Of a stretch of DNA of 64,000 nt, positions 51,011 to 64,000 are shown in pieces (position 1 is the stretch's first letter; each line of letters opens with the position of its first letter). The position numbers and the translations under genes were made by a program. The stretch is from a virus, in IMG/VR virus record IMGVR_UViG_3300035698_004752, positions 1 to 64,000 of that record; one strand, written 5' to 3'. The notes under the pieces are model-generated. The model made no database searches, was not told the origin of the DNA, and saw only the letters and a program-made list of their open reading frames with translations.

Positions 51011-51016
51011 ATTCAA

Positions 51017-51092: not shown

Positions 51093-51098
51093 ATATAT

Positions 51099-51492: not shown

Positions 51493-51496
51493 ACGC

Positions 51497-51735: not shown

Positions 51736-51748
51736 AAAATAAGAATAT

Positions 51749-51826: not shown

Positions 51827-51833
51827 AATATAT

Positions 51834-51926: not shown

Positions 51927-51932
51927 GAACAT

Positions 51933-52022
51933 GGGTTCTGTCATAAGGCTTCTGTGGAGAGGCGATGGGTTGTAGCCCCATTCCGGCAGCGGCACGAGGT
52001 TCGACTCCTCCGGAACCCACCA
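51933..52022 (+). tRNA. tRNA-Tyr(GTA)
   Basis: GGGTTCT/GGAACCC, ATGGG-TTGTAGC-CCCAT, variable arm CCG/CGG, A73-CCA. Confidence 0.85.
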
Positions 52023-52027
52023 AATAT

Positions 52028-52116
52028 GCGCGGTCTGATACGGTATTGGATTAGTGGAGAAAGTGCACATAATTCTCCCCACATTCGAATGAGGTTCGAC
52101 TCCTCGCCCTGCACCA
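52028..52116 (+). tRNA. class II tRNA-like gene, anticodon uncertain
   Basis: T-arm GAGG-TTCGACT-CCTC and CCA are clear. A variable arm CAT-TCGA-ATG is present. The anticodon arm GGAGAA/TTCTCC has an 11-nt loop AGTGCACATAA, so the anticodon cannot be read with confidence. Confidence 0.6.
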
Positions 52117-52121
52117 AGTTT

Positions 52122-52182
52122 AGGATGAATACAGCAACAAAACAAACGCTAACTTTTGATGTCTAGCGACAAAAATCATCCT
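52122..52182 (+). ncRNA. Y-like RNA element A (end-paired, ACAGCAAC motif)
   Basis: AGGATGA (52122)/TCATCCT (52176) is a perfect 7-bp closing stem. It is followed at once by ATACAGCAACAAAA, then a CGCTA/TAGCG hairpin and an A-rich 3' side. It shares its first strand, motif and CCTGTAA tail with the element at 54108. Confidence 0.5.
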
Positions 52183-52192
52183 GTAATTATTT

Positions 52193-52269
52193 GCCCGAAA
52201 CGCGTCCTGGTGGACCATCGATCTTTACATGGTTGATTATGGTGAGTTCAATTCTCACTTTGGGTACCA
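52193..52269 (+). tRNA. tRNA-Val(TAC)
   Basis: GCCCGAA/TTTGGGT, CGATC-TTTACAT-GGTTG, T-arm GTGAG-TTCAATT-CTCAC, CCA. Confidence 0.85.
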
Positions 52270-52289
52270 AGTTAGGTGTTGCAGCACCT

Positions 52290-52416
52290 TTTCGAAAGAA
52301 GTAAAGATTGTATATTACACTGCAAAAAGTAATAATTTTTACTGATATAGCCTGGATGGCGCGCCCCATAAGGCGAAGGATTGGTTCGATTCCATAATAT
52401 ATTTGCTCTTTCGAAA
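52290..52416 (+). ncRNA. tRNA-like element inside a 10-bp palindromic inverted repeat
   Basis: TTTCGAAAGA (52290) and TCTTTCGAAA (52407) pair over 10 bp. Between them are a CGCC-CCATAA-GGCG arm and a T-arm-like TTGG-TTCGATT-CCAT, but no normal acceptor or CCA. Possibly a decayed CAT tRNA. Confidence 0.4.
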
Positions 52417-52423
52417 GAAATAT

Positions 52424-52497
52424 GTCCCTATAGCATAGTGGTAATGCTGGCGCCTGATGAGCGTCCTACCAAAGTTCGATTCTTTGTAGGGATACCA
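52424..52497 (+). tRNA. tRNA-Ile(GAT)
   Basis: GTCCCTA/TAGGGAT, GGCGC-CTGATGA-GCGTC, T-arm CAAAG-TTCGATT-CTTTG, CCA. Confidence 0.88.
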
Positions 52498-52500
52498 AAT

Positions 52501-52592
52501 TACGAGTGTAAAAGATGCTACTATTAAATTAGTCATAGAGACTTGAGTGTTCGGTTTCTCGGACATCTTGGAGAGATCAAGTTCCCCTCGTA
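52501..52592 (+). ncRNA. structured RNA with nested stems
   Basis: TACGAG/CTCGTA encloses ACTTGA/TCAAGT, which encloses TGTTCG/CGGACA. No T-arm, CCA or coding frame. Confidence 0.4.
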
Positions 52593-52601
52593 TCAGAATT
52601 T

Positions 52602-52675
52602 CTGGGTATAGCTTAATGGTAAAGCAGTGGTCTTGGACCTCACGCATCGGAGTTCGATTCTCCGTGCCCTGACCA
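52602..52675 (+). tRNA. tRNA-Pro(TGG)
   Basis: CTGGGTA/TGCCCTG (one T-T mismatch), loop CTTGGAC, T-arm CGGAG-TTCGATT-CTCCG, CCA. Confidence 0.8.
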
Positions 52676-52681
52676 AAATAT

Positions 52682-52768
52682 GTAAGTGTAGCTTAATGAA
52701 AAGCCCTGCCAAATGCCATATTATCGTGTGCTGCGGAAGGAGATACATGCTCGAGTCATGTCACTTAC
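52682..52768 (+). ncRNA. cloverleaf-like RNA with oversized anticodon region, no CCA
   Basis: GTAAGTG/CACTTAC perfect acceptor, D-arm GCTT/AAGC, T-arm ACATG-CTCGAGT-CATGT. The middle is about 40 nt without a readable anticodon stem. Confidence 0.5.
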
Positions 52769-52778
52769 CCTAAAAATT

Positions 52779-52853
52779 GCTTCCAAACATCGGGTGATGT
52801 CGCCGGCCTTCCAAGCCGTGCTGGGTAGGGTTCGAGTCCCTCTGGACGCTCCA
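52779..52853 (+). tRNA. tRNA-Gly(TCC)
   Basis: Loop CTTCCAA, D-arm CATC/GATG, T73-CCA as expected for Gly. One acceptor mismatch. Confidence 0.85.
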
Positions 52854-52864
52854 AAACAAGAAAA

Positions 52865-52984
52865 AGTAACGCCCTGTCTAATACTAGTTAACATTCGACA
52901 GGAAAAAGCGGGCTGAGAGGCATACATCAGAGGAGTAATTACCAAAGATGAAAGCAATAACTCTTAAGAGCTGCGTTACTACCA
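52865..52984 (+). ncRNA. 120-nt RNA with tRNA-type acceptor and ACCA but no T-arm
   Basis: AGTAACG (52865)/CGTTACT (52974) perfect 7 bp then A-CCA. Inside are CCTGTC/GACAGG and the palindrome CTCTTAAGAG. No T-loop is present. Confidence 0.45.
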
Positions 52985-52988
52985 AATT

Positions 52989-53063
52989 GGCCTATTGATG
53001 TTAACGGTAGCATACCTGATTGTCCATCAGAGGGTACGAGTTCGATTCTCGTATAGGTCGCCA
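52989..53063 (+). tRNA. tRNA-Asp(GTC)
   Basis: GGCCTAT/ATAGGTC, loop TTGTCCA, G73-CCA, T-arm ACGAG-TTCGATT-CTCGT. Confidence 0.88.
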
Positions 53064-53068
53064 AATAT

Positions 53069-53144
53069 GCCGGTAAAGTGTTGAAGGATACACACTTGAT
53101 TGTGGATCAAGTATAGATGGGATCGTTACCCACTGCCGGTTCCA
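53069..53144 (+). tRNA. tRNA-His(GTG)
   Basis: GCCGGTA/TGCCGGT, CTTGA-TTGTGGA-TCAAG, CCA. T-loop ATCGTTA and T73 are unusual for His. Confidence 0.85.
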
Positions 53145-53163
53145 AATAATGAGAGGATATGAT

Positions 53164-53325
53164 ATGACTAAGAGATTTCCAGAGGATTACACTCACGCAG
53201 AACTTAATAAATTGGTTCTTTATCACCACTCGAAACATACAGAATATAAAACAAAATATTTAGATACACGCGATCAGCTGATCGAGATTCGTAAAGAACT
53301 CTCAGCTTTAAAACGTAAAAAGTAA
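53164..53325 (+). CDS. small basic protein (53 aa) inside the tRNA array
   Basis: Frame ATG 53164 to TAA 53323-53325 after GAGAGGATATGAT. MTKRFPEDYTHAELNKLVLY and a Lys-rich helical C-terminus (LIEIRKELSALKRKK). It begins 20 nt after a tRNA CCA. Confidence 0.6.
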   Translation: MTKRFPEDYTHAELNKLVLYHHSKHTEYKTKYLDTRDQLIEIRKELSALKRKK

Positions 53326-53326
53326 T

Positions 53327-53404
53327 GATATGGGAACTGGCTGGGTTCCGGAAGCGGATTGCAAATCCGTTAAAATTAGAGTTCGATTCTCTCCCATATC
53401 TCCA
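53327..53404 (+). tRNA. tRNA-Cys(GCA)
   Basis: GATATGG/CCATATC, GCGGA-TTGCAAA-TCCGT, T73-CCA. Confidence 0.9.
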
Positions 53405-53409
53405 AATTT

Positions 53410-53482
53410 GGTTACAGAGCATGGTGCTCAGATGTCTCTCATAAGGACGTTTTGCCTGGATCGATACCAGGTGTAACCACCA
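53410..53482 (+). tRNA. tRNA-Met(CAT), elongator-type or Ile2
   Basis: GGTTACA/TGTAACC, D-arm GAGC/GCTC, loop CTCATAA, T-loop ATCGATA, CCA. Confidence 0.85.
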
Positions 53483-53488
53483 AATAAT

Positions 53489-53564
53489 GTCCAAGTAGCT
53501 GATGTGGTCTTAGCGCTGAGTTGAAGCCTCAGAGATGTAAGTTCGATCCTTACCTTGGACACCA
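53489..53564 (+). tRNA. tRNA-Phe(GAA)
   Basis: GTCCAAG/CTTGGAC, CTGAG-TTGAAGC-CTCAG, A73-CCA. Confidence 0.92.
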
Positions 53565-53572
53565 AAGAATAT

Positions 53573-53695
53573 GCTCCTTAGCTTAAGAGAGAAGCGACAA
53601 CTGGTGTCCCTGCAGGGACTTGTTGGAGAAGGAAATTCGGCCAAATCGTTGCAACGGTGGAAGTCAGAGAGGTGTGATGCCTCCCAGGAGCACCA
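53573..53695 (+). ncRNA. 123-nt tRNA-like gene with long insertion
   Basis: GCTCCT/AGGAGC acceptor with A-CCA, D-arm GCTT/AAGC, T-arm-like GAGG-TGTGATG-CCTC. About 70 nt in the anticodon region contain ACAA/TTGT around the perfect hairpin GTCCC-TGCA-GGGAC and the palindrome CGTTGCAACG. It could be an insertion-bearing tRNA or a mimic. Confidence 0.5.
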
Positions 53696-53701
53696 TAATA
53701 T

Positions 53702-53779
53702 ATCACGTTAGTTTAAATGGAATAGAACACTTCACTTTCAATGAAGACGATGCGAGTTCGAGTCTCGTACGTGGTACCA
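53702..53779 (+). tRNA. tRNA-Glu(TTC)
   Basis: ATCACGT/ACGTGGT, CTTCA-CTTTCAA-TGAAG, T-arm GCGAG-TTCGAGT-CTCGT, CCA. Confidence 0.88.
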
Positions 53780-53802
53780 GAATATAGCAGTAATATGATG
53801 CG

Positions 53803-53900
53803 GATAACGTGTCTGAGTCATACGAAATGCTCGTCGGTAGGGAGGTTGTTGGCCTAAAGCCACGGCGTGAAAAGCTACGACGTTAAATGGAAGCCTCCCA
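53803..53900 (+). ncRNA. pseudoknot-forming structured RNA
   Basis: TAACGT (53805)/ACGTTA (53880) and GGGAGG (53840)/CCTCCC (53894) are interleaved. TGGC-ctaaa-GCCA lies between. No coding frame. Confidence 0.4.
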
Positions 53901-53908
53901 GAAATCAC

Positions 53909-53988
53909 GGACCAGGTCCAATCATTGGTCAATTGGAGCGGCCTTTTAACCCGTATGCGTCTGAGTTCGATTCTCAGCTGGTTCACCA
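53909..53988 (+). tRNA. tRNA-Lys(TTT), second copy
   Basis: GGACCAG/CTGGTTC, D-stem TCCAA/TTGGA, loop CTTTTAA with a C-C mismatch closing it, CCA. Confidence 0.78.
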
Positions 53989-53992
53989 AAAT

Positions 53993-54097
53993 TGGTAGTG
54001 ATATAATCTTCCCGTGTGAGGAAGACCTTAACGTTCCGTATTAATTTACCCGATCCAGAAGAAGGATGTTAAGTCAAAGGTGCAAACACCCCTACCA
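53993..54097 (+). ncRNA. cloverleaf-like RNA with 35-nt loop in the anticodon arm
   Basis: TGGTAG/CTACCA closes three arms: TCTTCC/GGAAGA, CTTAAC/GTTAAG (with a 35-nt loop) and GGTG/CACC. It ends in CCA only by virtue of the stem. No anticodon can be read. Confidence 0.45.
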
Positions 54098-54107
54098 GTA
54101 CTAATTT

Positions 54108-54320
54108 AGGATATATACAGCAACCAAATTTATTTTAGGTTCGACTCCTAAAGTCCCCACCACGAACACACTTGAACAAAGGTTAAATCCGTAGTTTAAC
54201 TGGACTGAATGTAGATTACATCGCGCGTTTAGTAAGTTCTAGTAGGTCATCAAGTGTGTTCTTGATGGGGACTTGGCATGGTGCCAGCGCAGTCATACTG
54301 CGTTTAACCCCATATATCCT
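54108..54320 (+). ncRNA. circularly permuted tRNA-like / Y-like RNA element D
   Basis: The ends AGGATATAT (54108)/ATATATCCT (54312) pair over 9 bp. After ACAGCAACCAAA come a T-arm (TTTAGG-TTCGACT-CCTAAA) and AGTCCCC-ACCA (to 54162). The matching GGGGACT lies downstream at 54267. Between the halves GAACACACTTGA (54164) pairs perfectly with TCAAGTGTGTTC (54250). The order 3' half, linker, 5' half is that of a permuted tRNA; hairpins GGC/GCC and CGCAG/CTGCG follow. Confidence 0.55.
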
Positions 54321-54332
54321 GTAACTAATAAT

Positions 54333-54407
54333 GCACCGGTAATTCAGCGGTAGAAATTCGGCCTCTTAACCCGAAAGTCGTGGGTTCGATCCCCACCCGG
54401 TACACCA
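54333..54407 (+). tRNA. tRNA-Lys(CTT)
   Basis: GCACCGG/CCGGTAC (one mismatch), loop CTCTTAA, T-arm GTGGG-TTCGATC-CCCAC, CCA. C-C closes the anticodon loop. Confidence 0.82.
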
Positions 54408-54413
54408 ATTCAA

Positions 54414-54487
54414 GGCCCCTTGGTGCAATGGTAGCACGCCAGGTTTTCAACCTGTAGACGAGAGATCGATACTCTCAGGGGCAACCA
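54414..54487 (+). tRNA. tRNA-Glu(TTC), second copy
   Basis: D-arm GTGC/GCAC, loop TTTTCAA, T-arm GAGAG-ATCGATA-CTCTC, A-CCA. G1/A72 mismatch. Confidence 0.78.
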
Positions 54488-54527
54488 ATTTATTAGCAAT
54501 TCGGCTGAAAAAACAAAGAGATATGAT

Positions 54528-54776
54528 ATGGAAAGCAAAGAAGAATTTTACAACAACGTGTCAAGAATACTTGGCATAGAACACGAATACAATGAACCAG
54601 TACCACGTAGAACTCGTTGGAACAATAGAAATATTGGCAACGGAAGATTCAAAGGTTTTGGTCTTGTTAGGTGTCATGGCTCCGGCGTAATCGTTATAAG
54701 CAAAAAAGATGGTACAAAAATATTTGATACTTATGACGAAGTTTATGAACATTTAAGGGGTTTACATCCTCTTTAA
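54528..54776 (+). CDS. hypothetical protein (82 aa)
   Basis: A basic central region (PRRTRWNNRNIGNGRFKGFG) and no known motif. It starts about 40 nt after a tRNA, and its 3' end contains the promoter at 54757. Confidence 0.6.
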   Translation: MESKEEFYNNVSRILGIEHEYNEPVPRRTRWNNRNIGNGRFKGFGLVRCHGSGVIVISKKDGTKIFDTYDEVYEHLRGLHPL

Positions 54777-54789
54777 GATACGGTATTAT
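54757..54789 (+). promoter_or_regulatory. class A promoter
   Basis: GGGG-TTTACA, 17 bp, TATTAT, inside the end of the previous gene. Confidence 0.8.
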
Positions 54790-54810
54790 ATTGAGATCAA
54801 AAGGAGATAT

Positions 54811-55092
54811 ATGATGATAAAATTCACTGCTTTTAATAATATAACTCGTGAAGAAATTGAATTAGCTATTGAACGGCTTCCAGAGCATGGTTTAACCCGC
54901 TGGAAAATGGGCGAAATTCTTGAACAGCTAGATAAGCATAATGATGCATTATCTTACACTCTCGCAAAGCTTCAATGGCATGATGAGTTTTTGGATTGGC
55001 TTGGTCAAAATGGTCGAGTAAGTCCCCTAGATATTCAAGATTTTTTCCGCTGGAAAGAAGCTGAGAAAATTGTAAACGAAATGATGAATTAG
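54811..55092 (+). CDS. hypothetical protein (93 aa)
   Basis: Preceded by AAAAGGAG; ATG 54811 or 54814. Helical, possibly winged-helix-like (ITREEIELAIERL; LTRWKMGEILEQLD), but this is uncertain. Confidence 0.6.
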   Translation: MMIKFTAFNNITREEIELAIERLPEHGLTRWKMGEILEQLDKHNDALSYTLAKLQWHDEFLDWLGQNGRVSPLDIQDFFRWKEAEKIVNEMMN

Positions 55093-55098
55093 AATAAT

Positions 55099-55173
55099 GG
55101 TTCGTTAGTGTAGTGGTCGCATCGCTGGTCTGTCAAGCCGGAGGAACGGGTTCAATCCCCGTACGAACCGCCA
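55099..55173 (+). tRNA. tRNA-Asp(GTC), second copy
   Basis: GGTTCGT/ACGAACC, loop CTGTCAA, G73-CCA, T-arm ACGGG-TTCAATC-CCCGT. Confidence 0.88.
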
Positions 55174-55181
55174 TTAAATAA

Positions 55182-55257
55182 CAGAGTATAGCTTAGTCGG
55201 TAAAGCGCTGGTCTTGGGTACCAGAGATCGAAGGTTCGAGTCCTTCTATTCTGACCA
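55182..55257 (+). tRNA. tRNA-Pro(TGG), second copy
   Basis: CAGAGTA/TATTCTG, CTGGT-CTTGGGT-ACCAG, CCA. Confidence 0.88.
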
Positions 55258-55273
55258 AAAAAAGGAAAATATT

Positions 55274-55435
55274 ATGAGCTTAACTAAACAGTTAGGTAAA
55301 TTGGAAAAACGCAAAATCGTGTTAGAGCAAAAGGCTCCGCGAACTATGGCGGATCAAAGTGAACTTCTTCACTTGATAAATGAAATTAAGAAGATAAGAG
55401 AATCCATTCTTAGACATAAGAGTGTATTTCACTAA
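55274..55435 (+). CDS. small helical basic protein (53 aa)
   Basis: ATG 55274 follows AAAGGAAAATATT just after the tRNA CCA. MSLTKQLGKLEKRKIVLEQK; coiled-coil-like. The longer in-frame start at 55214 would lie inside the tRNA and is rejected. Confidence 0.6.
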   Translation: MSLTKQLGKLEKRKIVLEQKAPRTMADQSELLHLINEIKKIRESILRHKSVFH

Positions 55436-55444
55436 TTTGTTCTA

Positions 55445-55590
55445 GATAAAGCTGGTTGCTTTATCGTCGAACGGGTACCAGCGATAGGTATATAATGCAG
55501 CAAAGAGTAATTGCTAAAAAATTCTCAAACGTTGAAGCCGGTTACTGCGTTTTAAATTCAGTGCTCACCACACATTACCGGATAAAATTT
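55445..55590 (+). ncRNA. structured spacer RNA
   Basis: GATAAAGC-tggtt-GCTTTATC perfect 8-bp hairpin, AGCAA/TTGCT and CCGGT/ACCGG stems; a TATAAT lies at about 55492. A frame here has no ribosome site. Confidence 0.4.
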
Positions 55591-55665
55591 GGGCCTAGTT
55601 TATGGGGTAACGGCAGATCCTTGCAAGATCCGCGTCAGAGAGTTCGATTCTCTCTAGGTCCACCA
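55591..55665 (+). tRNA. tRNA-Ala(TGC)
   Basis: GGGCCTA/TAGGTCC, loop CTTGCAA, T-arm AGAGAG-TTCGATT-CTCTCT, CCA. Confidence 0.9.
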
Positions 55666-55671
55666 AATAAC

Positions 55672-55746
55672 GGGACGCTGGTGTCAACGGGAACACGTCT
55701 GCTTTGCAAGCAGAAGTTCAGGGTTCGATTCCCTGGCGCTCCACCA
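55672..55746 (+). tRNA. tRNA-Ala(TGC), second copy
   Basis: TCTGC-TTTGCAA-GCAGA, D-arm GTGT/ACAC, CCA. One acceptor mismatch; sequence differs widely from the copy 7 nt upstream. Confidence 0.88.
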
Positions 55747-55754
55747 ATAGAATT

Positions 55755-55860
55755 AGGAAGTACAGGTGCACCTTGATAGGTGTGGTTAATATCCCTTATC
55801 CCTGTTGGGGTTAAGAGTAACACGAGCTTAGGGGCTCAGGTTCAATTCCACTCGCTTCCT
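55755..55860 (+). ncRNA. class II tRNA-like RNA without CCA
   Basis: AGGAAG/CTTCCT acceptor, CACCT-tgat-AGGTG, CTTA-CCC/GGGG-TAAG and GAGC/GGCTC arms, T-arm-like CAGG-TTCAATT-CC. No readable anticodon and no CCA. Confidence 0.45.
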
Positions 55861-55908
55861 TTAAAGTTTTTCAGCTTATTTTCTTCAAAAAAAATTGCGT
55901 CAAATTAT

Positions 55909-55983
55909 TCTCCGCTGGTCTAATGGCAGTGACGCTGGGCTTTGGTCCCGGAGTTCGAGGTTCGAATCCTCGGCGGAGATCCA
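55909..55983 (+). tRNA. tRNA-Gln(TTG)
   Basis: TCTCCGC/GCGGAGA, CTGGG-CTTTGGT-CCCGG, T-arm CGAGG-TTCGAAT-CCTCG, CCA. Confidence 0.88.
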
Positions 55984-56001
55984 AACATATAAAGGTTTAT
56001 T

Positions 56002-56244
56002 ATGAAATTACGTGAATTAGGTACTATCATCTCTGGTGAAGTTAAATCTCGCAGAGTCTTTCTTGAAGAACTAAAAGAAGAACTTGAAAAAGAAGGTTTG
56101 GAAGTATTAGAGATTTCAGAAAGTGATATGGAATGTCGATGGTGTACGGTCAAAAGAAGTGAAGGAAGAATCACTCCTATGACTAGAAATCTATTTAATA
56201 ATATTCGTGATACACCAACAATAAAAGAGTTTATAGCGGGTTAG
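56002..56244 (+). CDS. hypothetical protein (80 aa) ending inside a tRNA
   Basis: Follows AAAGGTTTATT. A charged helix (VFLEELKEELEKEGLEVLEI) then CRWCTV. Its stop TAG (56242-56244) lies inside the tRNA that starts at 56235. Confidence 0.65.
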   Translation: MKLRELGTIISGEVKSRRVFLEELKEELEKEGLEVLEISESDMECRWCTVKRSEGRITPMTRNLFNNIRDTPTIKEFIAG

Positions 56245-56332
56245 AGAAGTGGTCACAGGCTACGACAAAGTAGTTCATCTCATCAGGTTCATGACCTGAA
56301 GATCGTAGGTTCGAATCCTACATCCGCAACCA
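56235..56332 (+). tRNA. initiator-like tRNA-Met(CAT) with extra hairpin in the D-loop
   Basis: TCAGG-TTCATGA-CCTGA, T-arm GTAGG-TTCGAAT-CCTAC, ATCCGCA-A-CCA. The A1/A72 position is unpaired, as in initiators. The D-arm GAGA/TCTC encloses an additional CTAC-gacaaa-GTAG hairpin, giving 98 nt. Confidence 0.7.
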
Positions 56333-56336
56333 GTTA

Positions 56337-56431
56337 CGCTGTCCTTGGTAAGGTCTCCTGCCGATTAAGGTAGAGAGTGGGTCGGTTCGATTCCGAACGT
56401 ATGGATAAAGTCGGTTCGAATCCGGCCAGCG
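56337..56431 (+). ncRNA. tRNA-like RNA with two tandem T-arm-like hairpins
   Basis: CGCTG/CAGCG closes CCTT/AAGG, CTGCC/GGTAG, then TCGG-TTCGATT-CCGA and GTCGG-TTCGAAT-CCGGC. No CCA. Confidence 0.45.
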
Positions 56432-56440
56432 AATTCAATT

Positions 56441-56508
56441 AATGGCAGTTAGATAAGAAGTTCAGATGCGCAATGGTCACTACGGCCTATAAAAATGAAC
56501 TCGCCATT
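56441..56508 (+). ncRNA. stem-loop RNA
   Basis: AATGGC/GCCATT encloses GTTCA/TGAAC. No tRNA features. Confidence 0.4.
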
Positions 56509-56519
56509 GATCAATATTT

Positions 56520-56595
56520 GCCTCAATGATGGAATGGTATACATACGCTTCTGAGGAATGCGGTTCTCTGGGTTCGAGTCCCAGTTGAGGTACCA
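56520..56595 (+). tRNA. tRNA-Leu(GAG) with short variable loop
   Basis: GCCTCAA/TTGAGGT, loop CTGAGGA, about 5-nt variable region, A73-CCA. One stem mismatch. Confidence 0.75.
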
Positions 56596-56610
56596 AACAA
56601 AGGAAATTTT

Positions 56611-56811
56611 ATGGCTAATAGAACTTCAAGACATCAAAATCCTGGTGATAAAAACCTTAAAGGTAAAAAATCTAAAGGATATTGTATTTGTTGCGATGAT
56701 GTTATCAACCATAAAGAAAAGATCTTGAAAGAGATAGACGAAAAAGAAATGAAACAATATTGCTCCAGTGGTGGAATGGTAGACACATCGGCCTTAGTAC
56801 CCGATGCCTAG
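56611..56811 (+). CDS. small CxxC protein (66 aa) whose 3' end is a tRNA
   Basis: Preceded by AAAGGAAATTTT. GYCICCDDVINHKEK has clustered cysteines. The last 17 codons and the stop are read from the tRNA-Leu at 56762, so RNase P cleavage would remove the stop. Confidence 0.6.
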   Translation: MANRTSRHQNPGDKNLKGKKSKGYCICCDDVINHKEKILKEIDEKEMKQYCSSGGMVDTSALVPDA

Positions 56812-56844
56812 TGCGTGAGAGTTCGAATCTCTCTTGGAGTACCA
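56762..56844 (+). tRNA. tRNA-Leu(TAG), class II
   Basis: GCTCCAG/TTGGAGT, loop CTTAGTA, variable arm GC/GC, T-arm GAGAG-TTCGAAT-CTCTC, A73-CCA. Confidence 0.82.
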
Positions 56845-56883
56845 AAGTTTGCGATAGCATAATATTTGAATTAATTTCATTTA

Positions 56884-56929
56884 GGGGGTTTAAATTTAGT
56901 ATTTAACCCTTACTTATATAGTATCAAAG
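56884..56929 (+). promoter_or_regulatory. class B promoter
   Basis: GGGGGTTTAAATTTAGTATT, then AACCCTTACTTATATAGTATC. Confidence 0.8.
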
Positions 56930-56953
56930 AGACAAACAAAAGGATATTATATT

Positions 56954-57241
56954 ATGGGTAAATTAACTCAAGAAGAAAACTTTCAGCTTTCAAAATTGTT
57001 CAGCAAAATGGACAGCGATGATATTAGCTCGGTTTATACTCTAGCGAAATCAGCTCGCGGTCGATTGGATATGATGAAATCGGTTTCACTATATGTTGGT
57101 CAACCAGTTTCGTTTGTTGGAAAACGTAAGGTTATCGTGAAAGGTAAAATTACTAAAGTTAACACAAAAACCGTTAAAGTTCAAGCCGAAAGCGGCGTTC
57201 TATGGACAGTTTCAACATCATTGATCAAAACTGAGGACTAA
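56954..57241 (+). CDS. hypothetical protein (95 aa), possible small beta barrel at the C-terminus
   Basis: AAAGGATATT precedes the ATG. A helical N-terminus, then GQPVSFVGKRKVIVKGKITKV, which could be a KOW/SH3-like fold. No family name. Confidence 0.6.
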   Translation: MGKLTQEENFQLSKLFSKMDSDDISSVYTLAKSARGRLDMMKSVSLYVGQPVSFVGKRKVIVKGKITKVNTKTVKVQAESGVLWTVSTSLIKTED

Positions 57242-57242
57242 T

Positions 57243-57488
57243 ATGGGACTTCAAATAAACGTATATGATGACTCTTATGCAAAATATTTGCCTGATGATG
57301 TCGTTAGATTTATTAATGAGAATGCCCCATTTCCTCTTTCTTTTAAAATGGTTTATGAAAATTGGCTTGTACTGGGTGAAAGTGATAAGAAAATTATTCA
57401 GTTTATAAAAGCTATATTTTTAGAGGATGCTCAAATGACATATGGGGATGATTACCCATTTGAAACTGCATTCTATCTAAAATCATGA
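57243..57488 (+). CDS. hypothetical protein (81 aa)
   Basis: No recognised motif. It starts 1 nt after the previous gene and overlaps the next by 4 nt. Confidence 0.58.
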   Translation: MGLQINVYDDSYAKYLPDDVVRFINENAPFPLSFKMVYENWLVLGESDKKIIQFIKAIFLEDAQMTYGDDYPFETAFYLKS

Positions 57489-57706
57489 CTGAGAGAGAAT
57501 TAGCCCCAACATTTTCAGAATTATATGTTGAGGCACTTGAAAGACTTCCGGATGATTATCCGGACTTAGCAAGAATGAAAAGTCACTGGACACACGTTGG
57601 AAGAGATAATTTCTCATTAACAAATCCAAAATATCGTGATAAATGTAAGAAAGAAATTGATGATCATATCAATAAACTTTTAAAGAAACATAATCAATTG
57701 CCGTAG
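57485..57706 (+). CDS. hypothetical protein (73 aa) ending inside a tRNA
   Basis: Charged; its stop TAG (57704-57706) lies inside the tRNA starting at 57699. No family. Confidence 0.58.
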   Translation: MTERELAPTFSELYVEALERLPDDYPDLARMKSHWTHVGRDNFSLTNPKYRDKCKKEIDDHINKLLKKHNQLP

Positions 57707-57790
57707 GTGTTGGTACACATGGAGGTTTTATAAACCTTTAAGCCCCAGATTAGGGTTCTAGATAAGGTTCAAATCCTTATACGGCGACCA
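57699..57790 (+). tRNA. class II tRNA with apparent anticodon TAT
   Basis: TGCCGTA/TACGGCG, D-arm GTGT/ACAC, GAGGT-TTTATAA-ACCTT, variable arm CCC/GGG, T-arm TAAGG-TTCAAAT-CCTTA, CCA. A long variable arm is not expected for Ile. Confidence 0.7.
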
Positions 57791-57804
57791 AAAAGGACTA
57801 TATT

Positions 57805-58089
57805 ATGTCGGATGAAATCAAAATTAAAGTAACCGAAGAAACTGTTGATGATTGGATCTGTGGGATATTTGATGAAGATGACTATGAATTTAGCACTAAC
57901 GAATTAGCTATAGTAAGACAAAATGTTATTGATCAAGTAAAGGGTGAAATCCAGGATAATTTCTTGAACGATGTTTACCAATATCTTGATAAAAATGCTG
58001 TACTGCAAGGTTCAGGATATAAAGGCAACGAAGAAGAATCTTTTCCCGATCCTGAATGGGATCCGGTTGAGAAGATTTTCAAATACTAA
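57805..58089 (+). CDS. acidic hypothetical protein (94 aa)
   Basis: AAAAGGACTATATT precedes the ATG, right after the tRNA CCA. Strongly acidic (DDWICGIFDEDDYEFSTNEL); acidic early phage proteins can be DNA mimics, which is only a speculation here. Confidence 0.6.
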   Translation: MSDEIKIKVTEETVDDWICGIFDEDDYEFSTNELAIVRQNVIDQVKGEIQDNFLNDVYQYLDKNAVLQGSGYKGNEEESFPDPEWDPVEKIFKY

Positions 58090-58090
58090 T

Positions 58091-58163
58091 CCTTGGTCCA
58101 GCGGAACTGGTGACGAGCTTACGAAGCCTGTTTAAGGGAGTTCAACTCTCCCACTGAGGTCCA
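58091..58163 (+). tRNA. tRNA-Arg(ACG), second copy
   Basis: CCTTGGT/ACTGAGG, D-arm CCAG/CTGG, loop TTACGAA, T-arm GGGAG-TTCAACT-CTCCC, T73-CCA. Confidence 0.82.
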
Positions 58164-58168
58164 TATAT

Positions 58169-58242
58169 TGGGGAATATTTTAACGGTAGAAACGTAGACT
58201 CTGACTCTATTAGTCCAGGTTCGAATCCTGGTTCCTCAGCCA
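58169..58242 (+). tRNA. tRNA-Gln(CTG)
   Basis: TGGGGAA/TTCCTCA, GTAGA-CTCTGAC-TCTAT, G73-CCA. Confidence 0.85.
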
Positions 58243-58246
58243 ATAT

Positions 58247-58330
58247 GCTCGTATGATGGAATGGTAGACATAGCAGCCTCAAACACTGTGGCCGTAAGGT
58301 GTGAGAGTTCGAATCTCTCTACGAGTACCA
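58247..58330 (+). tRNA. tRNA-Leu(CAA), class II
   Basis: GCTCGTA/TACGAGT, loop CTCAAAC, variable arm GCC/GGT, T-arm GAGAG-TTCGAAT-CTCTC, A73-CCA. Confidence 0.85.
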
Positions 58331-58346
58331 AACAAAGGATTATATT

Positions 58347-58604
58347 ATGAATTGTTATAAGATAAGATCTAAGAAAGAGATTAGAGATAAACTCGCAGCA
58401 GAAGCAGATCCTAGATGGCCTATCCCAGAATTTTGGGGAGTAATGAATACCGGGAGGGATATGTGGGACACCGCTGGCGGCGCAAGCAAAGCACTAAAAG
58501 CTAGTGGTTATCACCGCGGTCAAAGTTTAACAGATTTTGAAATTGTTGAGTTCGACTTAGTTGCAACGGGAAAAACAATTCCTATTAAGGTTAAGAAATC
58601 ATGA
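58347..58604 (+). CDS. hypothetical protein (85 aa)
   Basis: AAAGGATTATATT follows the tRNA CCA. It has Trp/Gly-rich FWGVMNTGRDMWDTAGG, no known family. Overlaps the next gene by 4 nt. Confidence 0.6.
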   Translation: MNCYKIRSKKEIRDKLAAEADPRWPIPEFWGVMNTGRDMWDTAGGASKALKASGYHRGQSLTDFEIVEFDLVATGKTIPIKVKKS

Positions 58605-58945
58605 ACGCTCTTAAGATGACAAAAGAATTAGTTGACTATTATCCATGTAGAATACATGACAAGGGTCCAGGTGCATGGGGCGTCAGATCACACGACGACT
58701 TCGAACAATATCTAGAAGGCGGCAAAGCAGCAGCATATGTTGCAGCCAATCTTTTAAATGGATTACCTGCTCAAGCGGATCTAATTAATTTTGTGACAGA
58801 TCCAAAAGAAATTCACGATCTTGCCTCGATAACACGAGTAGAAGTCATTGATAAAACTGGCAGAGCTTATACGAACATGAAAGCTGAGAACGTCTCGCTT
58901 TCATTCCAAGACGACAATCGCACTCTCAAAGTGTTTATTGATTAG
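58601..58945 (+). CDS. hypothetical protein (114 aa)
   Basis: Mixed alpha/beta (KAAAYVAANLLNGLPAQADL) with no recognised motif, coupled to the previous gene. Confidence 0.6.
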   Translation: MNALKMTKELVDYYPCRIHDKGPGAWGVRSHDDFEQYLEGGKAAAYVAANLLNGLPAQADLINFVTDPKEIHDLASITRVEVIDKTGRAYTNMKAENVSLSFQDDNRTLKVFID

Positions 58946-58961
58946 GAAACAAAATGATTAT

Positions 58962-59037
58962 GTCCCGGTCGACTAGTGGTCTAGGTCGCCTCCCTCTCAA
59001 GGAGGAAACGCGGATTCGAATTCCGTTCGGGGCTCCA
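58962..59037 (+). tRNA. tRNA-Glu(CTC)
   Basis: GTCCCGG/TCGGGGC, CCTCC-CTCTCAA-GGAGG, T-arm CGGA-TTCGAAT-TCCG, T73-CCA. Confidence 0.85.
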
Positions 59038-59051
59038 GAAAGGAATATATT

Positions 59052-59255
59052 ATGGCTGATTTAAAATCATCAGAAGATTGGCACAAAGAGCCAAAATACA
59101 ATAAAATTGTTATAATGGATCCAGACGGTTGGAACCGAAAAGATTATAAAAATAGTTGGGCGGAAGAAATTTCACGCGATGAATTCGAACAAAGAGTTGG
59201 ATTATCAACGTGCAGTTACCCTGCCGGATTTTTTGAGCAATATAAATCCGCATAG
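59052..59255 (+). CDS. hypothetical protein (67 aa) ending inside tRNA-Val
   Basis: AAAGGAATATATT follows the tRNA CCA. The stop TAG (59253-59255) uses bases 8-10 of the tRNA that starts at 59246. Confidence 0.62.
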   Translation: MADLKSSEDWHKEPKYNKIVIMDPDGWNRKDYKNSWAEEISRDEFEQRVGLSTCSYPAGFFEQYKSA

Positions 59256-59320
59256 TTCAGGGGAAGAACGCTTCGTTGACATCGAAGAGGTCGCTGGTTC
59301 AATTCCAGCTGCGGATACCA
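59246..59320 (+). tRNA. tRNA-Val(GAC)
   Basis: ATCCGCA/TGCGGAT, CTTCG-TTGACAT-CGAAG, T-arm GCTGG-TTCAATT-CCAGC, CCA. Confidence 0.9.
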
Positions 59321-59325
59321 AAAAC

Positions 59326-59399
59326 GCTTGCATAGTATAAAGGGATTACGCTCCTTTGGTAAGGGAGAAACGATGGATCGATACCATCTGTGAGCACCA
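59326..59399 (+). tRNA. tRNA-Thr(GGT)
   Basis: GCTTGCA/TGTGAGC, CTCCT-TTGGTAA-GGGAG, T-arm GATGG-ATCGATA-CCATC, CCA. Confidence 0.88.
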
Positions 59400-59414
59400 T
59401 TAGAAAGTTACATC

Positions 59415-59969
59415 ATGAAACCCTTATTTATGAGCTCTCTACCGTTTATTGTAGACATAGATGAAATCCTAAGACTTCATAAGCTCGTGAGAGAGTACGT
59501 AGGTAAAGAAAACGAATTACAAATAGCAATTACCTGTCGTGATAGATCGATAGATCCACTAGAACAACTAATAAGTACTAGTGGTGGTCTTGGCGGGAAT
59601 TTTAAAGCCGATACGTGGGAAGATGGACTTCGACTAGAATCAGAATGTAAAGATCTCTGTTCCTGGTATGATGGTACATATATAGAAGATCTTTATAATG
59701 AATTATCTAAACACTTTATTCTTGGTAGAACAAGATTTATGTTGATGAAATCAAAATATTGTTACACTATGCATCGAGATGCTACACCAAGATTTCATAT
59801 ACCAGTTTTGACCGATAAAGATGCAGTAATGTTTGATAATGAATATACACCACATAAACTAAATATTAATAGACTTTATACCATTGACACGACTAGACAG
59901 CATACCGCTGCTAATTTTAGCCGTCAAGAAAGATTACATATTGTTGGAGGTTTTCGTAACCATGGATAG
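59415..59969 (+). CDS. aspartyl/asparaginyl hydroxylase-like Fe(II)/2OG oxygenase
   Basis: The 184 aa protein contains YTMHRDATPRFHIPVLTDKD (HxD) and TRQHTAANFSRQERLHIVGGF (distal His, Arg), the same fold pattern as 12572. It is a seventh oxygenase-like gene, distant from the main cluster and placed among tRNAs, so a tRNA or ribosome target is conceivable but unproven. Confidence 0.7.
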   Translation: MKPLFMSSLPFIVDIDEILRLHKLVREYVGKENELQIAITCRDRSIDPLEQLISTSGGLGGNFKADTWEDGLRLESECKDLCSWYDGTYIEDLYNELSKHFILGRTRFMLMKSKYCYTMHRDATPRFHIPVLTDKDAVMFDNEYTPHKLNINRLYTIDTTRQHTAANFSRQERLHIVGGFRNHG

Positions 59970-60147
59970 TAAAAGCGCTAATATAATTCGAGATGCTCTA
60001 AGAGAACTCTTGTATGAGCCTACATCCAAACACATCAAAGATGTCATTACCACCTGTCGTGATCGTGGTGATTACGTTACAGAAAAAGAAATAGATATAA
60101 TCGTAAATGAAGTATTTTGGGAAAATGAAAGAGAGCGAAACTCATGA
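59962..60147 (+). CDS. hypothetical protein (61 aa)
   Basis: ATG 59962 follows TTGGAGG and overlaps the previous gene by 8 nt. Helical; no motif. Confidence 0.6.
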   Translation: MDSKSANIIRDALRELLYEPTSKHIKDVITTCRDRGDYVTEKEIDIIVNEVFWENERERNS

Positions 60148-60160
60148 GTCTTAAACAAAT

Positions 60161-60249
60161 GGAGAGTGAAGGGGTCAGGTGACCTTGCTCGCTTGGAAAG
60201 CTAAGTGCTGGCGATAGTCAGTGGATTTCGATTATCCCGTTCTCCTCCA
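60161..60249 (+). tRNA. tRNA-Ser(GGA)
   Basis: GGAGAGT/GTTCTCC, loop TTGGAAA, long variable arm, T73-CCA. The anticodon stem is weak. Confidence 0.75.
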
Positions 60250-60262
60250 GAAAGGTTATATT

Positions 60263-60523
60263 ATGGTTAAACAAATATATTATAGAATTTCAGATGAATA
60301 TGGAAGCACATGGTATCCATTAAATCCAACTGGTAAATGTAAAAAAATTACTGGTGGACCTAATAATGATGATAATGGAATTTATCATCAACATCAATTA
60401 GGCGGAAGATACCTTGGCAGAAGCGGACCCAAAATCTGGATCCATGAAAGGGATCTTAAATGGTTTGATGTTCGTAAAGTAGAAATATTTAATTATGATA
60501 TACATCGAATTAAATCAAAATAG
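60263..60523 (+). CDS. hypothetical protein (86 aa)
   Basis: ATG 60263 follows AAAGGTTATATT, just after the tRNA CCA; the longer frame from 60221 would lie in the tRNA. Basic and aromatic (KQIYYRISDEYGSTWYPLNP). Confidence 0.6.
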   Translation: MVKQIYYRISDEYGSTWYPLNPTGKCKKITGGPNNDDNGIYHQHQLGGRYLGRSGPKIWIHERDLKWFDVRKVEIFNYDIHRIKSK

Positions 60524-60532
60524 GGGGTTTAA

Positions 60533-60566
60533 ATTCAAAAATAAACCCTTACTTATATAGTATCAA
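60533..60566 (+). promoter_or_regulatory. class B promoter
   Basis: GGGGGTTTAAATTCAAAAAT, then AAACCCTTACTTATATAGTATC, just before AAAAGGAG. Confidence 0.8.
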
Positions 60567-60577
60567 AAGGAGATACT

Positions 60578-60805
60578 ATGACTATTCGTTCTAAAAGTGA
60601 AAACAAAGAAATCGTAATCGACCTAACTGGTCCTGACGGCAACGCATTCGTTCTGTTAGGATATGCAAAAGGCTTTGCAAGAGATGTTGGATTCGATGAA
60701 GAAACCACCAACACAATTCTCGAAAGAATGAAATCGAGTGATTATGAAAACTTGATTAAAACGTTCGATGAGTATTTTGGTGATTTCGTGGTACTAGAAC
60801 GATGA
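60578..60805 (+). CDS. hypothetical protein (75 aa)
   Basis: Strong AAAAGGAGATACT ribosome site. Acidic C-terminus; no family. Overlaps the next gene by 4 nt. Confidence 0.6.
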   Translation: MTIRSKSENKEIVIDLTGPDGNAFVLLGYAKGFARDVGFDEETTNTILERMKSSDYENLIKTFDEYFGDFVVLER

Positions 60806-61053
60806 TCGATGTATCTAAATTTAAATATGTGACTGAGGACTTCAACAGTAAAAGTTGGATTATTAGTACACATGAAAAATACGAAGATGGACAAACTATT
60901 AGAATTGCTTTTGCAACTGCAGAAACGGAACAACTTGCTTATCAGGTATTTCATCTTATTACAACATATTCAAATATTGCGTACAATGTTGGTAAAGAAC
61001 ATGGACGCGAGGATATGCAAAAGGATCTACGTGAAACGTTAGGGATAAAATGA
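60802..61053 (+). CDS. hypothetical protein (83 aa)
   Basis: Alpha/beta pattern with no known motif (SWIISTHEKYEDGQTIRIAF). Coupled on both sides by 4-nt overlaps. Confidence 0.6.
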   Translation: MIDVSKFKYVTEDFNSKSWIISTHEKYEDGQTIRIAFATAETEQLAYQVFHLITTYSNIAYNVGKEHGREDMQKDLRETLGIK

Positions 61054-61403
61054 AATTCGATTTTCCAGTAATCTTTGATCAAGAACCTACAGCTGAACTT
61101 CTTGTTCAATATGGCTGCAATGGCGGCAAATATGGCCGGATTGGTCTTAGAATTGCTAAAAAATCATATATGCGAGTTCGTCTTGCAGGTGAGCAGAATT
61201 GGAAATGTTGCTGGTGTGGTATAGATACTATTCCCGAAAACAAAAAATCTAATTCAGCAACAATCGAACATGTAATCGTCCAATGTGAGGGTGGTACAGA
61301 CGATTGGGAAAACCTTGCAAGTGCTTGTAATAAATGTAACAACAAGCGTGGCTCAAAGCCCGCAGAAGAGTTTATGAATGGAATGCTTCAAAATAAGGGA
61401 TAG
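61050..61403 (+). CDS. HNH endonuclease-like protein
   Basis: The 117 aa protein has WKCCWCGIDTIP, TIEHVIVQCEGG and NLASACNKCNNKRG, giving the HNH core with CxxC pairs as in McrA-like nucleases. It could be a homing or mobile nuclease or a DNA-degrading enzyme. It overlaps the next frame by 26 nt. Confidence 0.85.
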   Translation: MKFDFPVIFDQEPTAELLVQYGCNGGKYGRIGLRIAKKSYMRVRLAGEQNWKCCWCGIDTIPENKKSNSATIEHVIVQCEGGTDDWENLASACNKCNNKRGSKPAEEFMNGMLQNKG

Positions 61404-61569
61404 AGTAACCCAGCAATGGTGTGCAACATCTTCTAATAGAACCCTTTGGGAAACCGAATTTGGGGCAAAACAAGCAATCTCGTATTTCGTGAGAATTACG
61501 TCAGGTTCAATGAAAGAGGATTTCGAGGCTGTACCGTTTCAGATGGTAGAACAACCGATTTTCGATTAA
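61378..61569 (+). CDS. hypothetical protein (63 aa)
   Basis: It overlaps the end of the HNH gene and stops 1 nt before tRNA-Gly. No known motif. Confidence 0.5.
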   Translation: MECFKIRDRVTQQWCATSSNRTLWETEFGAKQAISYFVRITSGSMKEDFEAVPFQMVEQPIFD

Positions 61570-61570
61570 T

Positions 61571-61645
61571 GCAGGTGTAGTATAATGGCTATTACGACTG
61601 GTTGCCAATCAGTAGACGAGGGATCGATACCCTTCACCCGCTCCA
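61571..61645 (+). tRNA. tRNA-Gly(GCC)
   Basis: ACTGG-TTGCCAA-TCAGT, T-arm AGGG-ATCGATA-CCCT, T73-CCA. One acceptor mismatch. Confidence 0.86.
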
Positions 61646-62714: not shown

Positions 62715-62721
62715 AGAATAT

Positions 62722-62811
62722 GGATTATTTCAGCAAACAATTTTAGCAGGTTCAATCCCTGCTTTTCGAGCCAAAACTTTCGAAAAGTTCAGCCCACGGT
62801 GGGCATAATCC
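62722..62811 (+). ncRNA. Y-RNA-like element B: end-paired RNA with permuted tRNA-like domain
   Basis: Ends GGATTAT (62722)/ATAATCC (62805) pair perfectly. After TTCAGCAAACAATTT come a T-arm GCAGG-TTCAATC-CCTGC and a strand TTTTCGA (62763), which pairs with TCGAAAA (62780). A D-arm-like GCCCA-cgg-TGGGC follows. The acceptor helix is thus capped by a 10-nt loop containing GCCA, and the anticodon arm is replaced by the closing stem. This resembles the tRNA-like module of bacterial YrlA RNAs. It lies 84 bp before a Ro-like gene. Confidence 0.6.
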
Positions 62812-62828
62812 AGTACATTATGAAACAT

Positions 62829-62879
62829 TGGTTTGTTTCAGCAACTAAATTTTCTTGAAACGAAAACAAAATCAAACCA
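62829..62879 (+). ncRNA. Y-like RNA element C (end-paired, CAGCAAC motif)
   Basis: TGGTTTG (62829)/CAAACCA (62873) perfect 7 bp, then TTTCAGCAACTAAATTTT, a GTTTC/GAAAC stem and an A-rich 3' side. It has no tRNA-like domain and ends 16 bp before the Ro-like start codon. Confidence 0.45.
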
Positions 62880-62895
62880 GAATAGGAATATAATT

Positions 62896-64000
62896 ATGAA
62901 TACTTTCGCAAACGCCGTTTCTAACTTTGACTACAACACTGTTGCACGTACAAAGAACGGAATGAAGTCACCAAAGAACACTTCCTCAAATGTTCTAGAT
63001 CTTTTCGGTAAGGCAGGTTCTGCCCGTGGTAAGGATATTAGTCAGTCATTTGTAGCATCTTTCGGTGAAGACCCAGCACTTACACTTCGTGTATTGATGT
63101 GGGCTCGAGATATTCGCGGTGGAGCCGGTGAGCGTCAGACCTTCCGTACTCTTCTTGCTGGACTTGAAAAGTCTAATCCAGTCGCAGCTGGTAGCATCAT
63201 GCACAAGATTCCGTTGCTTGGACGTTGGGACGACTTGTTCGTTTACCAGGATTCAACTAACCGTAGTGCAGCAATCGCAATGATTGCGGAAGCACTCGAT
63301 GACGGAAACGCACTCTGCGCTAAGTGGATGCCACGTAAGGGTAAGGTTGCAGTAGAGCTCACTAAGGCTTTCGATCTTTCCCCTCGTCAGTACCGTAAGC
63401 TAATCGTTGGTCTAACTAACGTTGTTGAAACTGATATGTGTGCAAAGAACTGGGATAAGATTAATTTCTCACACATCCCATCACTTGCATCTGCTCGTTA
63501 CCAGAAGGCATTTGGACGAAACGCGTCTGAGGCATACTCTGCCTACATTCACGATCTTCAGAAGCCTGTAGCCGAGCGTTCTAACCCTAAGGTTAAGATC
63601 AATGCAGGAGCAGTATACCCATACGATATTGTTAAGTCAGTAGGTAAGGGTAATGCGGCAGTAGCAGACGAACAGTGGAAGGCATTGCCTAACTTCATTG
63701 GTAACTCGAAGATCTTCCCAATGGTTGATGTTTCTGGTTCAATGGGTTCACTTGGTTGGGATTATGGTGGCAACACTGGACCTTCACCAATTCTCGCAGC
63801 GGTTTCCCTCGGTCTCTACTGTGCAGATAAGAACCAGGGTGCATTCAAGGACTTGTTCTTGACATTCAGTGGCTCACCAGAAATCGTTAATTTGAAGGGT
63901 ACTCTTTCAGAGAAGATGAAGCAGATGTCTACCGCTAATTGGCAGATGAATACTAACCTCAACGCTGCAATGGATCACATCCTAAATGTAGCTGTTAAGG
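62896..64000 (+). CDS. Ro60/TROVE-like protein with vWA domain (DUF2828-type), cut by window end
   Basis: The frame is open from ATG 62896 (after ATAGGAATATAATT) to the end of the window, at least 368 residues. A helical N-terminal part (LRVLMWARDIRGGAGERQTF; KIPLLGRWDDLF) is followed by a vWA-type MIDAS motif FPMVDVSGSMGS near residue 280. Ro60 proteins combine a helical TROVE ring that binds Y RNAs with a C-terminal vWA domain. A DUF2828-type identity is from memory. Adjacent Y-like RNAs support an RNA-binding role. Confidence 0.65.
   Translation, partial: MNTFANAVSNFDYNTVARTKNGMKSPKNTSSNVLDLFGKAGSARGKDISQSFVASFGEDPALTLRVLMWARDIRGGAGERQTFRTLLAGLEKSNPVAAGSIMHKIPLLGRWDDLFVYQDSTNRSAAIAMIAEALDDGNALCAKWMPRKGKVAVELTKAFDLSPRQYRKLIVGLTNVVETDMCAKNWDKINFSHIPSLASARYQKAFGRNASEAYSAYIHDLQKPVAERSNPKVKINAGAVYPYDIVKSVGKGNAAVADEQWKALPNFIGNSKIFPMVDVSGSMGSLGWDYGGNTGPSPILAAVSLGLYCADKNQGAFKDLFLTFSGSPEIVNLKGTLSEKMKQMSTANWQMNTNLNAAMDHILNVAVK

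What the first reader, a model, noticed from the sequence alone, without database searches (positions are those of the whole stretch)
62722..64000. Ro60-like gene directly preceded by YrlA-like RNAs
A TROVE/vWA-type protein gene follows two RNAs whose ends form a closing stem. The first contains a permuted tRNA-like fold with its acceptor helix capped by a loop, as reported for YrlA Y RNAs. In bacteria yrlA genes lie next to rsr (Ro). This may be a complete phage Ro-Y RNA system beside a giant tRNA array.
Basis: partly seen in the sequence, partly recalled or inferred. Interest (0 to 1): 0.88.

Follow-up and report, generated by a model that had tools for sequence, protein, structure and literature searches.

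The report
Phage Ro protein with tRNA-mimic RNAs
This virus of bacteria, like hundreds of relatives, carries a gene for a ring-type RNA-binding protein (Ro fold) surrounded by a set of small RNA genes that share one end-pairing handle and display copied pieces of transfer RNA, including anticodon loops not described for this kind of RNA in the papers I could search, which suggests a protein-bound set of tRNA look-alikes used during infection.

Summary
C (62721-62812) and D (62829-62879) are real, and the downstream protein (62896-64332) has the Ro fold: not Pfam TROVE, but DUF2828+DUF7788, and the best Foldseek PDB hits are all Ro/Rsr/TROVE. The contig holds eight RNA elements of one family: 7-bp closing helix, 3 nt, CAGCAA, A-rich strand, closing helix, then G. 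Across 207 loci from very different phages, 609 such elements lie on the Ro-gene strand and 14 on the other. Starting from the RNA motif alone, 77 of 84 sites have the helix, all followed by G, and 32 of 50 contigs encode the protein. The inner domains are tRNA mimics of three kinds: YrlA-type permuted tRNA (B, C, E), half of the longer caps keeping N-CCA; acceptor-less tRNA with D, anticodon and T arms (F); short RNAs with a lone anticodon stem-loop (45 of 178, 2.4 expected). Phage Ro proteins and YrlA-like Y RNAs were known; the CAGCAA handle, multi-RNA sets and anticodon-bearing Y RNAs appear new. Best mechanism: Ro RNPs displaying tRNA parts to tRNA-handling enzymes, perhaps decoying anticodon nucleases; the target is inferred. 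Leader autoregulation is also plausible.

The parts
62896..64000 (+). Ro-fold RNA-binding protein gene (DUF2828 + DUF7788, vWA MIDAS DxSGSM), 478 aa, continues to 64332 on the contig
62721..62812 (+). Element C: YrlA-type RNA; 8-bp closing stem, TTTCAGCAAACAA, T-arm, capped acceptor with G-CCA in the cap, D-arm-side hairpin, G at +1
62829..62879 (+). Element D: short Y-type RNA, closing stem TGGTTTG/CAAACCA, inner hairpin TTTTC-TTGAAAC-GAAAA (anticodon-loop-like, GAA); ends 16 nt before the ATG of the Ro gene
54108..54320 (+). Element B: 213-nt permuted tRNA-like RNA inside the tRNA array; T-arm, AGTCCCC-A-CCA, ~100-nt capping hairpin, GGGGACT, D-arm-like and second hairpin, 9-bp closing stem
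52122..52182 (+). Element A: short Y-type RNA, AGGATGA/TCATCCT closing stem, inner CGCTA/TAGCG hairpin
50861..61645 (+). tRNA array in which elements A and B are embedded (context; elements E-H lie beyond the window at contig 64353-64544, 65017-65113, 66205-66291, 66411-66475)

Best explanation
The locus encodes a phage Ro ribonucleoprotein: one Ro-fold protein plus a repertoire of small Y-type RNAs. Shown by sequence comparison: every RNA of the family has the same handle (7-bp closing helix, 3 nt, CAGCAA, A-rich 3' strand, G after the helix), found with the Ro gene in phages of very different lineages, and many of the variable inner domains are copies of tRNA parts: permuted tRNA with capped acceptor (YrlA type), acceptor-less tRNA with an anticodon arm, or a lone anticodon stem-loop. 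Inferred: the handle is the Ro-binding site, and the RNA-loaded Ro protein displays the tRNA part to enzymes that recognise tRNAs. The most likely use is as bait or competitor for tRNA-attacking host nucleases or tRNA-handling enzymes, or as a tether that brings such an enzyme to the RNP, because different RNAs show different arms and different anticodons. I put the RNP identity at about 0.9 and the decoy/competitor role at about 0.35-0.4.
For: Ro fold: the nine Foldseek PDB hits at E<1e-3 are all Ro/Rsr/TROVE (2nvo, 1yvr, 9kop, 2i91 ...), TM 0.38-0.61. Handle: CAGCAA is the 6-mer with the largest strand excess behind a 7-bp closing stem in each of four sets (Felix-like 52 vs 2, actinophage set 119 vs 0, Listeria-like 22 vs 0, eight GenBank phages 15 vs 0); 609 vs 14 elements with the +1 G on Ro-gene strand vs opposite strand in 207 loci; +1 is G in 98% of elements though not used for detection. 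Reverse test from the RNA motif alone: 77/84 with closing stem, 77/77 with G, reversed-stem control 3; 32/50 contigs encode the protein. tRNA parts: YrlA architecture in 54 of 395 non-redundant elements, 0 in shuffles; anticodon arm + T-arm 16 vs 0; short elements with anticodon-loop signature 47 vs 2.1, or 45 of 178 vs mean 2.4, max 6, in 200 dinucleotide shuffles; 57 of 81 loops identical to real tRNA anticodon loops, 38.7 expected (max 49) when columns are permuted. Covariation in the acceptor-less class: 12 of 16 pairs change on both sides, score 0.58 vs 0.125 shuffled and at most 0.093 slid. N-CCA directly after the acceptor strand in 15 of 30 caps of 6 nt or more, at no other offset.
Against: No RNA or binding data. 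Binding of the handle by the protein is inferred from co-occurrence. More short RNAs lack a recognisable tRNA part than have one (129 'short other' vs 47; A, G, H here). The anticodons shown are diverse and do not track the tRNAs of the same locus (34 of 69 vs 30.5 expected), and the stems do not copy those of phage tRNAs, so no particular nuclease is pointed to. RtcB was found near the gene in only 3 loci with one query.
Confidence: 0.6

Rival explanations
1. Leader autoregulation: the element just upstream of the Ro gene (D here) is a binding site in the mRNA leader by which the Ro protein controls its own synthesis; the other elements are free RNAs that compete for the protein.
For: In 46 of 65 loci an element ends within 100 nt upstream of the Ro start, many with gaps of 14-26 nt; D ends 16 nt before the ATG, next to a Shine-Dalgarno-like AGGA.
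Against: Most elements lie elsewhere (tRNA array, downstream) and would not be explained by it; it does not explain tRNA-part mimicry.
Confidence: 0.3
2. Deinococcus-type tether: the RNAs attach the Ro ring to a nuclease such as PNPase and specialise it for structured RNA or for decay of host tRNA/rRNA; the tRNA parts are the module recognised by that enzyme.
For: Established for D. radiodurans Rsr/Y RNA/PNPase (as described in PMC7790460 and PMC12282133); same overall fold and YrlA-type module.
Against: A single tether does not need many different anticodons or three different tRNA parts per phage; no partner was identified.
Confidence: 0.25
3. Two-piece permuted tRNAs or tRNA-derived relics: B, C and E are processed at the acceptor (RNase P, CCA end) into split tRNA-like molecules held by the closing helix, as alphaproteobacterial two-piece tmRNA is; the handle stabilises them.
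For: Exact 7-bp acceptors, discriminator + CCA in the right place in 15 of 30 caps of 6 nt or more; canonical UAGCUCA..GGUAGAGC D-arms in many relatives.
Against: Most other caps are 3-5 nt and lack CCA; no anticodon arm in C; D-arms of B and C are degenerate; does not explain the short RNAs.
Confidence: 0.1

Closest known systems
Bacterial Y RNA YrlA (Rfam RF02553; Chen et al. 2014, known here through PMC9569102 and PMC12282133)
   Same: Ends pair; T-arm, capped acceptor, D-arm in permuted order (B, C, E); next to a Ro-type gene. Elements of related phages score 39-47 bits with RF02553.
   Different: Window elements do not match RF02553; the phage handle is a 7-bp helix with CAGCAA and a +1 G that is absent from the RF02553 consensus; long caps often keep N-CCA; many sister RNAs carry anticodon arms, which the RF02553 consensus lacks.
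Ro60 / Rsr (TROVE proteins, e.g. D. radiodurans Rsr, PDB 2nvo)
   Same: Helical-repeat domain plus vWA with MIDAS-type DxSGSM; Foldseek E 4.7e-8 to 7e-7.
   Different: No match to Pfam TROVE; belongs to DUF2828+DUF7788 / phrog_850; sequence identity to Ro structures 12-17%.
Phage 'Ro-like RNA binding protein' (phrog_850), e.g. mycobacteriophages, Felix O1, Listeria phage CKA15_055
   Same: Same protein family, 682 phage records; for CKA15 the authors already suggested an Rsr homologue and neighbouring Y RNAs (PMC12282133).
   Different: The abundant RNAs at 26236-26727 of that phage lack the motif; three CAGCAA elements lie at 25290-25552. No common motif or anticodon content was described there.

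Membership tests
Ro60/Rsr (TROVE) protein | Match to Pfam TROVE PF05731 | tested here: not met
   No hit on the contig nor among Pfam matches of the protein; DUF2828 and DUF7788 instead
Ro60/Rsr (TROVE) protein | Ro fold: helical-repeat ring domain plus vWA domain | tested here: met
   AF2 model pLDDT 87.8; only Ro/TROVE structures at E<1e-3
Ro60/Rsr (TROVE) protein | Binds Y RNA and/or misfolded RNA ends | not testable with these tools
   Needs CLIP or in vitro binding
YrlA Y RNA (element C) | tRNA-like module: T-arm, acceptor capped by a loop, D-arm | tested here: met
   T-arm and 7-bp capped acceptor exact; D-side hairpin present but degenerate; class found in 54 of 395 elements, none in shuffles
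YrlA Y RNA (element C) | Rfam RF02553 score at or above gathering | tested here: not met
   No match at C, E or B; related phages 39-47 bits, below 69
YrlA Y RNA (element C) | Ends form a helix that is the Ro-binding site | tested here: inconclusive
   Closing helix met, but its conserved sequence (CAGCAA, +1 G) differs from the RF02553 consensus; binding untested
YrlA Y RNA (element C) | Encoded next to a Ro-type gene | tested here: met
   C ends 83 nt and D 16 nt before the start codon; element within 100 nt upstream in 46 of 65 relatives

The most novel reading that the evidence does not exclude
Many tailed phages make a previously unrecognised class of Y RNAs that display isolated anticodon stem-loops and acceptor-less tRNAs on a Ro ring, as decoys or sensors for anticodon nucleases and other tRNA-targeting immunity.
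Probability: 0.35. Interest if true: 0.92.

Novelty: new variant of a known kind. Interest (0 to 1): 0.82.

Why it matters
It gives a sequence definition (closing helix + CAGCAA + G) that finds phage Y RNAs directly, and shows that they come in sets and copy tRNA parts including anticodon loops. That makes two open questions testable in laboratory phages such as Felix O1-like phages or mycobacteriophages of the Silverleaf kind: what bacterial and phage Y RNAs are for, and whether phages answer tRNA-cleaving defences with RNA decoys as well as with spare tRNAs and repair enzymes.

Tried and rejected
Single-sequence AF2 model: useless (pLDDT 35). PDB sequence searches with the protein or profile A1: no significant hit, TROVE entries only at E about 0.5. 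Rfam on C and E: only chance matches or none. Idea that the most abundant CKA15 transcripts (26236-26727) are members of this family: rejected, no motif there. Idea that anticodons of the RNAs match the tRNAs of the same locus: not supported (34 of 69 vs 30.5); the full 10/10 stem matches there are probably ARAGORN calling the acceptor-less RNAs themselves tRNAs. Algal-type permuted tRNA gene: rejected as the main reading, since closing helix, CAGCAA motif and Ro gene go together and C has no anticodon arm. RtcB co-location: 3 loci only with one query. T5 as a Ro-less control: record not in the collection under that accession. Chen 2014 and the 2020 Sim/Wolin review are not in the paper library, so what they report on phage Y RNAs is known to me only through citing papers and memory.

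Full report
WHAT IS THERE. The window is part of a 69,703-base virus record of IMG/VR; bases beyond 64000 were read as L001 (L001 position + 50000 = contig position). Reading on, the same 5' motif recurs in E (64353-64544), F (65017-65113), G (66205-66291) and H (66411-66475), and inside the tRNA array in A (52122-52182) and B (54108-54320). All eight have a closing stem and all eight are followed by G.

THE PROTEIN. Pfam finds DUF7788 (2.8e-44) and DUF2828 (5.5e-22), PHROGs finds phrog_850 'RNA-binding protein' (1e-138), and TROVE is absent. Sequence searches of the PDB give nothing significant. A model from an alignment of 40 viral-contig relatives is confident (pLDDT 87.8, pTM 0.88), and Foldseek returns nine PDB chains at E<1e-3, all Ro/Rsr/TROVE; plain vWA domains follow only at E>5e-3. 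So it is a Ro-fold protein of a separate sequence family. 682 phage records encode a relative, several annotated 'Ro-like RNA binding protein'.

THE RNA FAMILY. In 207 loci around relatives (3.3 Mb), CAGCAA with a 7-bp closing stem ending 3 nt before it is found 698 times on the Ro-gene strand and 91 on the other; with G right after the helix, 609 vs 14, in 188 loci. The G was not used to find the elements (98% of 206). Among all 4096 6-mers, CAGCAA has the largest strand excess in each of four separate phage sets. The closing helix varies: 82 distinct helices in 264 elements, with all four Watson-Crick pairs at several positions (pairing was required for detection, so this alone is not proof). 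As a test in the other direction, the pattern TTTAGGATNNNTACAGCAA alone was scanned over viral contigs: 84 occurrences in the fetched loci, 77 with the helix (3 for the reversed stem), all 77 with G; 32 of 50 of those contigs, and 8 of the 10 that are 100 kb or longer, encode the Ro-like protein.

THE INNER DOMAINS. In 395 non-redundant elements: 54 have a T-arm followed by a 7-nt strand that pairs across a cap and, in 52, a D-arm (YrlA architecture; 0 in shuffles); 16 have an anticodon arm followed by a T-arm with the closing helix in place of the acceptor (0 in shuffles), 8 of them with loop CUUCUAA (Arg UCU), F in this contig among them; 47 short ones have a 5-bp/7-nt hairpin with Y32, U33, R37 (2.1 in shuffles). 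Over 178 non-redundant short elements, 5-bp hairpins with 7-nt loops number 79 (23.2 expected, max 36); smaller loops are at or below expectation, 9-nt loops show a lesser excess (43 vs 20.9) and 8 and 10-12 nt a weak one; the anticodon signature is met by 45 (2.4 expected, max 6). The loops are real anticodon loops: 57 of 81 equal a tRNA loop found in the same loci, 38.7 expected by column permutation, maximum 49. The acceptor-less class shows compensatory change in 12 of 16 pairs. Some YrlA-type RNAs also carry an anticodon arm and thus hold a complete permuted tRNA (e.g. L017 3823-3937). In 15 of 30 caps of 6 nt or more, N-CCA stands exactly where a tRNA would end; C (G-CCA) and B (A-CCA) belong to them.

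HOW IT LIKELY WORKS. Shown: the handle, its link to the gene, and the tRNA copies. Inferred: the protein binds the handle; the inner domain is displayed. Because each phage has several RNAs with different tRNA parts and anticodons, I favour a role as bait, competitor or adaptor toward enzymes that handle or cut tRNA; the authors of PMC7790460 raised the competitor idea for Salmonella YrlA, which lacks an anticodon arm. The position of one element 14-26 nt before the Ro start in many relatives (46 of 65 have one within 100 nt) also fits autoregulation, and both could be true. No specific nuclease is indicated.

WHAT IS KNOWN. Y RNAs near Ro genes in bacteria and mycobacteriophages (Chen 2014, via PMC12282133 and PMC9569102), Ro-like proteins in jumbo and other phages (PMC7824862, PMC7765460), and a suggestion for Listeria phage CKA15 (PMC12282133) precede this. 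RF02553 gives 39-47 bits to elements of related phages, below its cut-off of 69, and does not match C, E or B. I found no description of the CAGCAA handle, of multi-RNA sets, or of anticodon-bearing Y RNAs in the papers I could search, but that library lacks most subscription papers and the primary Y RNA papers that matter most.

LIMITS. The classes depend on my grammar; about a third of the elements are 'short other' and a third 'other', and the latter include chance long-range partners. Non-redundancy was judged by shared 5-mers. The 'Myco/actino' and 'Listeria-like' sets are named after their query and include distant relatives of unknown host. No expression or binding data exist for this contig.

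Noticed in passing
window 9691-10106: Rfam calls a permuted (two-piece, alphaproteobacterial type) tmRNA on the phage contig: alpha_tmRNA 115.6 bits, tmRNA_permuted 103.3 bits. A phage-borne permuted tmRNA on the same contig as permuted tRNA-like RNAs.
   Followed up: no
L041 11896-12138 (Cronobacter phage S13): Two neighbouring tRNA genes of 121 and 113 nt carry a similar ~30-nt insert (ACGCAAACTGAYAAGTTTGTATTCAGCA) just downstream of the Ro-like gene.
   Followed up: no
L017 9750-9919, L034 9788-9957, L040 9782-9951: In several relatives the element right before the Ro gene is ~170 nt long with a conserved GGAGCCTGTATGGGCTTTGAAGGTG core; not a tRNA mimic by my grammar, not identified.
   Followed up: partly
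contig 64421-64503 (element E cap) and L038 6990-7065: The long caps of E and of the B-type element in L038 share ACTCGTTATAYCCACT...GACGCTAAAGGRTGAACT, an unknown sub-domain inserted between CCA and the acceptor 5' strand; no Rfam match.
   Followed up: partly
window 51834-51922: Rfam tRNA-Sec model just above its cut-off (48.8 vs 47 bits); loop reads CTTGAAA, so it may be a tRNA-Ser(UGA) with a long variable arm.
   Followed up: no
L124 2737-3228 (Listeria phage cka15, OR088597 26236-26727): The most abundant phage transcripts of CKA15 come from here (PMC12282133) and lack the CAGCAA handle; a different, unidentified ncRNA upstream of the Ro gene.
   Followed up: partly
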